From contig NZ_CP127161.1 of NCBI RefSeq assembly GCF_030263895.1, positions 3,286,001 through 3,350,000 on the forward strand: DNA of 64,000 nucleotides, in the 5' to 3' direction. Position 1 is the stretch's first letter. Each line of letters opens with the position of its first letter. The position numbers were made by a program, and so were the translations under genes. The notes beneath the pieces are model-generated. The model made no database searches. It was not told the origin of the DNA and saw nothing but the letters and a program-made list of their open reading frames with translations. Source of the DNA: Proteiniborus sp. MB09-C3. Lineage in GTDB: Bacteria; Bacillota; Clostridia; Tissierellales; Proteiniboraceae. This document shows positions 40,685 to 55,338 of the stretch, piece after piece.

Positions 40685-41410
40685 CTATACTAGATCTAGC
40701 ATTCCAAACCCACTATTTCTTTTTGATCCTATACCTGATTTGTAAATATAATCTAAAATATATGGCTTAGCTTGTACCTTTATCATACATATATTTGACA
40801 GGATTTCTATTCCATAGTGTTTTACTTTGACCTCTTTATTGATTAACACCTGAAAATCTACTTCTTCAATATCTAATCTTCTCTCTTCACCAAAGCTATC
40901 TAATAACTGGTATTTAATATTTTCTATAAATATTTCTTTTCCTTTTTCTTCATTTAAAGAATGGTACCATGTTTTCTCATTATCACCTTTATGTTCTCTA
41001 ACAACTACCGGAGACATAGAAGAATAGACAGCGTAATCATTAGTTATTATTTTTTCTTTATTCATATTTATCCTATTTATAGTTATAGAATTATCTTTCA
41101 CTTTATAAGGTTTTCCTTTATTGGCTAATGCTGCATTATAGAAGAGAATTCCGTCCCTCATATCGGCTGTTGCAAAATTCAAAATTATTTTCTTGTTTGG
41201 AATTATTATTTCTTCTCTAGTAAATTCACAGTTTGGCATATATAAAGAAAAAGCGAAACTTTTGCTTTTGTTCTCTTCATTCTCGTATAATGATACATAA
41301 TAGTCTTTATCATAGGATTCATAAATATGTTTTAGAAGAGAAATTATAATCCTATTTTTATCTTTTGGTATATTTTCATTAGATAATATTAATTCAACAT
41401 TATATCTCAT
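40685..41410 (-). CDS. cas6: CRISPR RNA endoribonuclease Cas6
   Basis: 241 aa with a C-terminal glycine-rich loop (YKSGIGSKRNSGFGMLDLV) diagnostic of Cas6. Cuts repeat RNA to leave an 8-nt 5' handle, here AUGUAAAU. First gene of the operon; ribosome site GGGAGGTGAAAGC before ATG 41410. A roughly 230-nt untranslated leader separates it from the predicted promoter and contains the protospacer and hairpin described below. Confidence 0.94.
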   Translation of the reverse strand: MRYNVELILSNENIPKDKNRIIISLLKHIYESYDKDYYVSLYENEENKSKSFAFSLYMPNCEFTREEIIIPNKKIILNFATADMRDGILFYNAALANKGKPYKVKDNSITINRINMNKEKIITNDYAVYSSMSPVVVREHKGDNEKTWYHSLNEEKGKEIFIENIKYQLLDSFGEERRLDIEEVDFQVLINKEVKVKHYGIEILSNICMIKVQAKPYILDYIYKSGIGSKRNSGFGMLDLV

Positions 41411-41444: not shown

Positions 41445-41491
41445 CTAGTAAAGCTGTAATCTTTTACAACTTAAAATTACAGCTTTATTAG
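41445..41491. promoter_or_regulatory. Hairpin in the cas6 5' untranslated leader
   Basis: CTAGTAAAGCTGTAAT (41445-41460) and ATTACAGCTTTATTAG (41476-41491) pair over 16 bp with one non-Watson-Crick pair (G.U if the plus strand is RNA, C.A if the minus strand is). The loop is 15 nt. On the cas mRNA it lies about 20 nt before the cas6 ribosome site. It may act as an attenuator, an mRNA stabiliser or the end of a short RNA. Confidence 0.6.
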
Positions 41492-41607
41492 AGTTGTTAA
41501 ATTAAATTTAAGATATATTCTATTTTTCAATAATAATTTTAACAGAAACAGGTATCTTGCTTATTATTAAGAATATAACCAATAAGTAATTAATCACTTT
41601 TTTACTT

Positions 41608-41631
41608 CCATTGTTATTTTATTTATTTAAT
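41608..41631 (+). promoter_or_regulatory. Self-protospacer with CCA PAM downstream of the cas promoter
   Basis: CCA (41608-41610) precedes 21 bases (41611-41631) identical to the first 21 bases of the mini-array spacer (41770-41790), beginning TTGTTATTTT. Identity stops at both ends: before it are PAM versus repeat handle, after it T versus C. The site is about +10 to +30 relative to the predicted cas start. Confidence 0.85.
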
Positions 41632-41647
41632 TAATGCTCTTAATAAT

Positions 41648-41676
41648 AAGATATAAAAAAATATCTGCTTTGTCAA
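41648..41676 (-). promoter_or_regulatory. Predicted promoter of the cas operon
   Basis: On the minus strand a perfect TTGACA (41676-41671), 17 bp, then TATCTT (41653-41648). Start expected near 41641. It is the only consensus -35 in the region. The -10 is weak, so a low or regulated promoter is likely. Confidence 0.65.
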
Positions 41677-41719
41677 TATGTATTTTTTAAAATTTTTAAT
41701 AATATTTTTCTATTAAATA

Positions 41720-41821
41720 TGATATACTATAAATGCGTATTTAATAGAATCAATATATGGAATGTAAATTTGTTATTTTATTTATTTAATCTTTTTAATA
41801 GAACTATATTAGAAATTATCT
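41720..41821 (+). ncRNA. Mini-CRISPR encoding a crRNA-like regulator (CreR/CreA-type)
   Basis: Extended -10 TGATATACT (41720-41728) predicts a start near 41735. Degenerate repeat 1 (41739-41769) reads TTTAATAGAA at its start and ends GGAATGTAAAT, so the 8-nt handle ATGTAAAT is exact. A 23-nt spacer follows (41770-41792). Degenerate repeat 2 (41793-41821) keeps TTTAATAGAACTA and TAGAA but has lost the handle end. Cas6 could cut at repeat 1. The spacer matches 41611-41631 in the cas leader. This is the design of the Cas-regulating RNAs (CreR) and CreA antitoxin RNAs known from other type I systems. Function here is inferred. Confidence 0.82.
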
Positions 41822-41830
41822 ACTTCCAAC

Positions 41831-41863
41831 TGAATGATATTATTACATCAATAATATCATTCA
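41831..41863. promoter_or_regulatory. 14-bp perfect inverted repeat after the mini-array
   Basis: TGAATGATATTATT (41831-41844) and AATAATATCATTCA (41850-41863), loop 5 nt. No T run on either side, so it is more like an operator than a terminator, although it begins 9 bp after the mini-array and could protect or end that RNA. Confidence 0.6.
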
Positions 41864-41886
41864 ATGGTGAAGTAAAATGTACCTAT

Positions 41887-42048
41887 TCATAAATAGTTTG
41901 CAATTTCTTCAATAATATCTCCCTTATGTTTATCTAGTTCTAAAATCTTCACCTTACTATCAATTCTTATTGCCCATATCTTAACTTCCTTATGACCTTT
42001 TAAATTTGCTTTAAAATTTATACTATTTTTATCTACTTCCGTTATTTT
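41887..42048 (-). pseudogene. Remnant of a second WYL-regulator C-terminus
   Basis: Directly after the stop of the WYL gene the same frame continues for 53 codons: KITEVDKNSINFKANLKGH, then KEVKIWAIRIDSKVKILEL and GDIIEEIANYL, ending TGA at 41887. It parallels the C-terminus of the intact gene (KITELDTKTILFEAKMNGY..IKAWVMSMGSNVDVV..EDIIEEATKIINLY). It has no start or ribosome site of its own. Probably the tail of a former tandem copy. Confidence 0.7.
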
Positions 42049-43020
42049 TTATTCAAAGAACAGTGATTTTCCTTTATACAAGTTAATTATTTTAGTAGCC
42101 TCTTCTATTATATCTTCTTTCAATTTATTAGGTTTAACGACATCTACATTACTTCCCATACTCATTACCCATGCTTTTATTTCTGGGTATCCATTCATTT
42201 TTGCTTCAAAAAGTATAGTCTTTGTATCCAATTCAGTTATTTTTTGTGACTTAGATATTTGTTTTTCTTTTACTATTTCACTCATTGGATAGAATATCTT
42301 CAATTCAAGATCAATAATTTCATCATTAAATATTCCAAATGACTTTTCCATAATTTCTTCAAACTTAAATCTATGCTTTATGTCAAACTTGTCTTTCATA
42401 ACTTGATAGTCTAAGATTCTAGACAATTTAAAAAAACGTACATTTCTTGCACTTTCACAATACCCATAGAAATACGTAGCACCTTTATAGTCAAAAATAC
42501 CATATGGGTTTACTATTCTTTCCTTTATTTCTAAACCATATTTCTTTAAGGATTTATATTTTATTTTTACTTTTTTTCTTTGATTTATTGCTAGATTAAT
42601 ATCTATCCATACTCTTTTTTCTTTTTCAACTATTTCATCCGATTCCTTCATTAGTTTATTGTGATAAGATATATTATCATCTAGGTGTTTTTCATAATTT
42701 AATATTTTACTCGTAAATATCTCGAACTTTGAACTATAGTGATATTTACCGCTTTTAATTGTTTCTTTTGCCATCTTTAAAGCACTTAACTCATCTTCCG
42801 TAAAAGATAGTCCATCTAGGTATCTCTTATTTTCTAAATAGTAACCTCCATACCTTCCTAATTTTGAACCTATGTATATACCTGCCATTTCTAAATCTTT
42901 TTTGTATTCTTTTATCATTCTTGAGCTTACTTCTAATTCACTTGCTATTTCATTGATTTTCATTATATCTCTCACTTGAAGTAAAAAATACATATTAAGT
43001 GCATTAGATATGCGAGACAT
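42049..43020 (-). CDS. WYL-domain transcriptional regulator
   Basis: 323 aa. N-terminal helix-turn-helix (KINEIASELEVSSRMIKEY near residues 21-40), middle WYL domain (about 138-215, with RIVNPYGIFDYKGATYFYGYC and RFFKLSRI), C-terminal WCX region. WYL proteins bind nucleic-acid or nucleotide ligands and often regulate phage defence, including CRISPR operons. It lies upstream of cas6 on the same strand, with the mini-array between, so control of cas or of the mini-array is plausible. The ribosome site AAAGGGTGATGGG precedes ATG 43020. Confidence 0.87.
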   Translation of the reverse strand: MSRISNALNMYFLLQVRDIMKINEIASELEVSSRMIKEYKKDLEMAGIYIGSKLGRYGGYYLENKRYLDGLSFTEDELSALKMAKETIKSGKYHYSSKFEIFTSKILNYEKHLDDNISYHNKLMKESDEIVEKEKRVWIDINLAINQRKKVKIKYKSLKKYGLEIKERIVNPYGIFDYKGATYFYGYCESARNVRFFKLSRILDYQVMKDKFDIKHRFKFEEIMEKSFGIFNDEIIDLELKIFYPMSEIVKEKQISKSQKITELDTKTILFEAKMNGYPEIKAWVMSMGSNVDVVKPNKLKEDIIEEATKIINLYKGKSLFFE

Positions 43021-55112: not shown

Positions 55113-55181
55113 AATACCACTCCAAAATCAGGTTCATTTTACTTAATTATATCATTCTTATCCATATAAATAAACATGTCT

Positions 55182-55338
55182 CTGATAAAAGCGTTCAGAA
55201 AATCGGGTTAGGTCATTTTCCGCAGTCTCGCAACTCAAATTTATTTGTTCGCTGTCGCTCTCATAAATTTGGTGCTCGTTGCGTTTGACCTACCAGCGAT
55301 TTTCTGATAAAAGCGTTCAGAAAATCGGGTTAGGTCAT
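55182..55338. repeat. 35-bp direct repeats with internal inverted repeat
   Basis: A 35-bp sequence starting CTGATAAAAGCGTTCAG occurs at 55182-55216 and 55304-55338, identical. Between them, GAAAATCG..TAGGTCA and TGACCTACCAGCGATTTTC form an imperfect inverted pair. GC-richer than its surroundings. It looks like a REP/MITE-type element between the lacI start and the chemoreceptor end. Confidence 0.7.

What the first reader, a model, noticed from the sequence alone, without database searches (positions are those of the whole stretch)
41608..41821. Mini-CRISPR whose spacer targets the cas operon's own promoter region
Two degenerate repeats (41739-41769, 41793-41821) flank a 23-nt spacer. Repeat 1 keeps the exact 8-nt handle; repeat 2 keeps only the repeat's 5' half, as expected if only the first needs correct processing into handle. 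The first 21 spacer bases equal 41611-41631, directly 3' of CCA, and identity ends sharply at the PAM/handle on one side and at base 22 on the other. The match covers the seed but not a full-length spacer, which would allow Cascade binding without cutting by Cas3. The target lies just downstream of a perfect TTGACA -35 for cas6. An extended -10 precedes the mini-array in divergent orientation. Together these form a predicted feedback loop: when canonical crRNAs or Cascade are plentiful the loop represses cas; when an anti-CRISPR inactivates Cascade the operon is derepressed. Known relatives are CreR and CreA; I know of no report for this Tneap-type clostridial locus.
Basis: partly seen in the sequence, partly recalled or inferred. 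Interest (0 to 1): 0.95.

Follow-up and report, generated by a model that had tools for sequence, protein, structure and literature searches.

The report
Mini-CRISPR that represses its cas operon
Next to its CRISPR immune genes this bacterium carries a tiny degenerate CRISPR unit whose guide RNA matches the control region of those same genes, and relatives show guide and target changing together, so the immune system very probably switches itself down with its own guide RNA; the principle (CreR) is known, this case is new and unusually well supported.

Summary
A two-repeat degenerate mini-CRISPR (41739-41821) has a 23-nt spacer whose first 21 bases equal 41611-41631, beside a CCA PAM and just downstream of the only good promoter reading into an intact type I-B cas operon. 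Chance does not explain it: 0 of 9000 simulated sequences reached even 12 bases with a CC PAM. Relatives settle it. In a same-genus genome, spacer and target changed together at positions 3 and 16; their only mismatches up to position 18 are 12 and 18. In 29 of 73 related I-B loci a degenerate repeat is followed by a seed (positions 1-5, 7-11) matching a CCN protospacer upstream of their own cas6, against 0.3 expected. Free mismatches concentrate at 6 and 12, the bases Cascade flips out. This is a CreR-type guide for autorepression: a known kind, new member. Open: in long-leader relatives, and weakly here, the repressed promoter also precedes a small hydrophobic ORF, so a CreTA-like toxin component is possible. 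A temperate phage contig carries a mini-array imitating one relative's guide.

The parts
41739..41769 (+). psi-repeat 1 of the mini-CRISPR, degenerate 5' and middle part, intact handle ATGTAAAT at 41762-41769
   Evidence: sequence; homologue in G002
41770..41792 (+). psi-spacer, 23 nt; first 21 nt equal the target
41793..41821 (+). psi-repeat 2, keeps TTTAATAGAACTA..TTAGAA but not the handle
   Evidence: same form of repeat 2 in most relatives with a mini-array
41720..41728 (+). extended -10 (TGATATACT) of the mini-array; predicted start about 41735
   Evidence: conserved as TGTTATACT in G002
41821..41874 (+). long hairpin after the mini-array, possible 3' end of its RNA (no U-run); single copy in the genome
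41608..41610 (+). PAM CCA
   Evidence: unbiased PAM tally CCA 18, CCT 9, CCG 1, CCC 1 of 37 seed matches
41611..41631 (+). target (protospacer) of the mini-CRISPR
   Evidence: covaries with the spacer in G002
41648..41676 (-). predicted promoter upstream of cas6: TTGACA (41676-41671), 17 nt, TATCTT (41653-41648)
   Evidence: TTGACA-17-TATTAT in G002
41520..41597 (-). candidate 25-codon hydrophobic leader ORF (GTG start, weak ribosome site, 4 ATA codons)
   Evidence: core conserved with an in-frame 3-nt indel in G002; function inferred only
41446..41491 (-). hairpin in the cas6 leader
   Evidence: a T-A to C-G change keeps the stem in G002
40685..41410 (-). cas6
   Evidence: TIGR01877
38988..40676 (-). 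cas8b1 (cst1)
   Evidence: TIGR01908
38114..39016 (-). cas7 (cst2)
   Evidence: TIGR02585
37357..38127 (-). cas5b
   Evidence: TIGR01895
35080..37338 (-). cas3, HD nuclease and helicase
   Evidence: TIGR01587, TIGR01596
34572..35063 (-). cas4
   Evidence: TIGR00372
33568..34584 (-). cas1b
   Evidence: TIGR03641
33285..33605 (-). cas2
   Evidence: TIGR01573
25907..33098 (-). largest canonical CRISPR block, 111 repeats
42049..43020 (-). HTH-WYL-WCX regulator gene upstream of the mini-array
   Evidence: PF13280, PF25583, PF08279

Best explanation
The mini-CRISPR is a creR gene. Shown: a degenerate two-repeat unit with its own extended -10, whose spacer matches a PAM-flanked site at the start of the predicted cas6 transcript, and which coevolves with that site. 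Inferred: the RNA starts at the first repeat; Cas6 cuts repeat 1 to give the AUGUAAAU handle and probably repeat 2, leaving a guide of about 53 nt. Cascade carrying this guide binds 41608-41631, pairs over 21 nt, does not fire Cas3 because the match is too short, and blocks the promoter at 41676-41648, lowering cas expression. Canonical crRNAs (about 206 repeats here) compete for Cascade and relieve repression, and anti-CRISPRs that disable Cascade would do the same.
For: Same-genus genome G002: spacer and target both change G to A at position 3 and T to G at position 16; the only mismatches within positions 1-18 are 12 and 18. Of 73 related loci, 29 (25 different seeds) match their own cas6 upstream region by the seed rule with a CCN PAM; cross-locus pairing predicts 0.3. 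Among the 25, with positions 1-5 and 7-11 fixed by the rule, mismatches are 10 at position 6, 16 at 12, but 4 each at 13 and 14. PAM inferred without assuming it: 29 of 37 seed matches have CCN, as measured for C. difficile I-B (PMC8406132). Type I-B crRNAs of 26 nt or less repress without cutting in Parageobacillus (PMC10551041). CreA pairs at 1-5 and 7-11 and has two degenerate repeats (PMC8501985). No other promoter-like site lies between target and cas6 on that strand except a weak one overlapping the target, 41643-41616. A phage mini-array imitates the guide of a relative.
Against: No RNA or expression data. Promoters are consensus matches (7 found, 7.2 expected in shuffles). The target lies 200 nt from cas6, further than in many relatives, and a possible ORF lies between. 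The downstream hairpin has no U-run. Only one same-genus relative shows the covariation in this clade.
Confidence: 0.76

Rival explanations
1. CreTA-like addiction module: the mini-CRISPR is an antitoxin guide (CreA) whose main client is a small toxic ORF or RNA in the leader; cas6 lies behind the same promoter and may be repressed with it, or may use another promoter.
For: Of 11 non-redundant loci with a leader of 100 nt or more, 7 contain a strong ribosome-binding site away from cas6, against 2.2 in shuffles (P 0.0005); none of the loci with short leaders do. ORFs there are small and hydrophobic (L005, L053, L055, L052). Two Listeria loci (L034, L038) encode homologous 64-67 aa membrane proteins there, absent from the 7 other genomes searched in the genus. 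The window has a 25-codon hydrophobic ORF at 41597-41520 with tandem ATA codons, its core kept with an in-frame indel in G002. CreTA in Citrobacter has the same divergent layout (PMC12055562).
Against: In the window the ribosome site is weak, in G002 no good start is seen, and no Pfam family is hit. Many relatives have the guide and target with no room for an ORF. No toxicity data. Not exclusive with CreR.
Confidence: 0.25
2. Chance similarity in an AT-rich intergenic region, or a dead relic of a mini-array.
Against: Simulation, covariation, 29 of 73 relatives, periodic mismatches.
Confidence: 0.02
3. An ordinary short CRISPR array that acquired a self-targeting spacer (accidental autoimmunity).
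For: A spacer matching the own chromosome beside a functional PAM.
Against: Spacer of 23 nt instead of about 36, match of 21 nt, repeats too degenerate for adaptation, conserved place upstream of cas6 in distant species with different spacers.
Confidence: 0.02

Closest known systems
CreR, cas-regulating crRNA-like RNA (Liu et al. 2023, recalled; reviewed in PMC12737573)
   Same: Degenerate mini-CRISPR near cas genes, PAM-adjacent partial complementarity to the cas promoter, no toxin needed; described for type I and V-A systems.
   Different: Longer contiguous match (21 nt, no mismatch at 6, 12 or 18); 200-nt leader that may hold an ORF. The original paper is not in the library, so its list of loci could not be compared.
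crRNA-like regulatory mini-arrays (Shmakov et al. 2023, NAR 51:8150; recalled, text not held)
   Same: Standalone repeats with spacers partly matching cas promoters, and phage copies.
   Different: Whether these I-B loci are in its lists could not be checked.
CreTA / CreA (PMC8501985, PMC9458426, PMC12055562)
   Same: Two divergent degenerate repeats, pairing at 1-5 and 7-11, PAM, Cascade-dependent repression, possible mini-ORF with tandem ATA codons.
   Different: Target lies before the cas operon with no separate cas promoter seen; toxin not established here.
tracr-L of type II-A Cas9 (Workman et al. 2021; cited in PMC10651486)
   Same: Guide RNA represses its own cas promoter.
   Different: Cas9 and tracrRNA, not Cascade; unrelated RNA.

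Membership tests
CreR | CRISPR-like unit with repeats derived from the cognate repeat, outside the array | tested here: met
   repeats 1 and 2 resemble CTTTAATAGAACTAGAGTAGAATGTAAAT; repeat 2 has 7 mismatches in 29
[quoted passage not shown]
CreR | Guide and target maintained by selection | tested here: met
CreR | No toxin gene under the same control | tested here: inconclusive
   weak 25-codon ORF in the leader
CreR | Processed RNA and Cascade-dependent repression of cas | not testable with these tools
   needs RNA sequencing and reporter assays
CreTA | Two divergent degenerate repeats flanking a spacer-like sequence | tested here: met
   compare PMC8501985
CreTA | Toxin gene or RNA directly behind the target promoter (strong start signal, rare codons, stem-loop) | tested here: inconclusive
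   window: tandem ATA and a hairpin, but weak ribosome site; stronger in L005, L053, L055, L034, L038, L052
CreTA | Loss of Cascade is toxic | not testable with these tools
   needs gene deletion

The most novel reading that the evidence does not exclude
A hybrid of CreR and CreTA: one RNA guide holds down a single promoter that drives both a small membrane-active peptide and the whole cas operon, so that an anti-CRISPR attack would release new Cascade and a suicide peptide together; some Bacillota would have it in this form and others as plain CreR.
Probability: 0.22. Interest if true: 0.78.

Novelty: new member of a known kind. Interest (0 to 1): 0.55.

Why it matters
It shows, from sequence alone, RNA-guided control of cas genes kept by selection in type I-B loci of many Bacillota and one Thermotogota (Marinitoga), with clean signatures (PAM, seed, flipped bases at 6 and 12, covariation) that give a simple recipe to find more. 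Leaders that also hold small hydrophobic ORFs raise a testable link between autorepression and toxin addiction, and the phage copy points to a way for phages to lower host immunity.

Tried and rejected
Chance match: rejected by simulation and cross-locus control. Separate genus and family searches added only one useful genome. Looking for further phage mimics: four seed scans of viral contigs gave 94 hits, none but L103 preceded by a real repeat; L104-L106 from a loose repeat pattern had no matching spacer, although L105 looks like a short array. Annotated phages gave no convincing homologue of the L103 mini-array. The original CreR paper and Shmakov 2023 are not held. The hairpin at 41821-41874 as a dispersed repeat: rejected, single copy. 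Three loci (L018, L056, L069) passed 12 of 17 matches but lack a repeat and were dropped.

Full report
Observation. The degenerate repeats are 41739-41769 and 41793-41821, the spacer is 41770-41792, its first 21 bases equal 41611-41631, and CCA precedes the target. The downstream operon on the minus strand is a complete type I-B set: cas6, cas8b1, cas7, cas5, cas3, cas4, cas1, cas2. Canonical repeats form four blocks between 11.4 and 33.1 kb, about 206 in all. The genome is one contig of 3.88 Mb. It belongs to the order that also holds Tissierella: several genomes returned by the order search match Tissierella loci.

Chance. In 9000 simulated leaders the longest match next to a CC PAM was 11 bases, and 14 without a PAM, against 21 observed. 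PAM plus seed with position 6 free occurs at three places in the genome; only the cas6 site is exact over 11 bases.

Covariation. In genome G002, same genus, the homologous mini-array and target lie at the end of a contig; the piece that carries cas6 starts on another contig, only 77 nt before cas6, so the join is inferred. Spacer TTATTATTTTACTTAGTTAAT faces target CCA-TTATTATTTTAATTAGTAATA. Compared with the window, position 3 changed G to A and position 16 T to G in both spacer and target. The only mismatches up to position 18 are 12 and 18. These are the positions at which Cascade flips a base out of the guide duplex (established for type I effectors, own knowledge).

Wider set. A Cas7 search gave 56 loci and a Cas6 search in the order added more; 73 loci were compared. 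By a rule that demands a handle with at most one mismatch, a CC PAM and identity at 1-5 and 7-11, 29 loci match their own cas6 upstream region. Pairing each locus's guides with other loci's regions predicts 0.3. The 29 represent 25 different seeds. If the PAM is not demanded, 29 of 37 matches still have CCN. Among the 25, mismatches were 10 at position 6 and 16 at position 12, but 4 at 13 and 4 at 14; positions 1-5 and 7-11 are fixed by the rule. In a selection without position preference (13 or more of 17 matches: 29 loci against 1.9 expected), the same peaks at 6, 12 and 18 appear (the position tally there covers the 32 loci with 12 or more, including a few false ones). The set includes Tissierella, Anaerosalibacter, Peptoniphilus, Desulfosporosinus, Listeria species and Marinitoga. 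Repeat 2 is mostly of the form TTAATAGAACTATATTAGAA without a handle, or its local equivalent.

Architecture. Three layouts occur: a divergent mini-array with a target within about 65 nt of cas6 (for example L008, L032, L059); a mini-array on the cas strand inside the cas6 leader (L017, L019, L021, L023, L028); and a target 130-540 nt upstream of cas6 (window, G002, L005, L013, L053, L055, Listeria L034, L038, L052, also L012 and L041). In the window the predicted promoter is TTGACA-17-TATCTT and the target lies just downstream; in G002 it is TTGACA-17-TATTAT. The mini-array has an extended -10 ending 33 nt before the handle, conserved in G002, and similar sites occur in about ten relatives.

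Mechanism. The anatomy is that of CreR and CreA. Published work supports the steps: pairing at 1-5 and 7-11 with a PAM, two degenerate repeats giving an 8-nt and a 22-nt handle (PMC8501985); repeat degeneration as protection against recombination (PMC9458426); type I-B guides of 26 nt or less repress without cleavage (PMC10551041); CCN PAM in C. difficile (PMC8406132). Nothing here measures RNA or expression.

The leader ORF question. In the third layout the long leaders contain strong ribosome-binding sites more often than shuffles (7 of 11, 2.2 expected, P 0.0005), none of the shorter leaders do, and they are followed by small hydrophobic ORFs. The two related Listeria loci encode homologous 64-67 aa membrane proteins at this place (50% identity, E 2.7e-16), absent from the other seven genomes searched in that genus. 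The window has a 25-codon hydrophobic frame at 41597-41520 with a weak start; its core LLVI(F)LIISK is kept in G002 with a 3-nt indel. The choice of ribosome-site patterns was made after seeing some of these sequences, so the P value is indicative only. A toxin role is inference by analogy with CreTA.

WYL regulator. Where a WYL gene stands directly before cas6 with no mini-array, its match mostly ends 45-130 nt from cas6 (L006, L009, L010, L024, L056, L074; L011 is at 243). Where a mini-array is present it ends 286-642 nt away, with the mini-array between. In the window a 48-residue fragment of a second WYL gene (44% identical) survives at 41905-42048.

Phage copy. Viral contig L103 has an integrase, a repressor-like gene and an anti-repressor-like gene. 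It carries a two-repeat mini-array with a terminator-like end. Its spacer matches 15 of 17 bases of the CCA-flanked site before cas6 in L013, L053, L067 and L068, with mismatches only at 6 and 12; 0.02% of shuffled spacers reach seed plus 13-17. Genome G189, in which L068 lies, holds in a different CRISPR array a spacer identical over 37 bases to the second repeat and following sequence of this phage mini-array. This ties the phage, or a relative, to a host whose cas promoter its guide fits.

Verdict. Real, well supported, a new member of a known kind. The specialist surprise lies in the strength of the signatures and in the two side findings, not in the principle.

Noticed in passing
L103:4882-4985: Temperate phage contig with a two-repeat mini-CRISPR whose spacer fits the cas6 promoter site of Anaerosalibacter-type I-B loci (15 of 17, mismatches only at 6 and 12).
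   Followed up: partly
L200:1501-1537 (genome G189): A spacer in a CRISPR array with a different repeat is identical over 37 bases to the second repeat and following sequence of the L103 phage mini-array; the host thus carries immunity against the phage's own mini-array.
   Followed up: partly
L034:5257-5460 and L038:5245-5439: Homologous 64-67 aa membrane proteins with strong ribosome-binding sites between the guide's target and cas6 in two Listeria species; possible CRISPR-repressed toxin.
   Followed up: partly
41905-42048: Decayed C-terminal fragment of a second WYL regulator gene between the mini-array and the intact WYL gene.
   Followed up: partly
41821-41874: Long hairpin conserved in the same-genus genome, single copy, without a U-run; may define the end of the guide RNA.
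   Followed up: partly
55181-55216 and 55303-55338: Perfect 36-nt direct repeat, 122 nt apart, of unknown meaning.
   Followed up: no
L105:4490-4514: Viral contig with a repeat of this family followed by a short spacer and a second repeat-like sequence; its spacer matches none of the cas6 regions examined.
   Followed up: no
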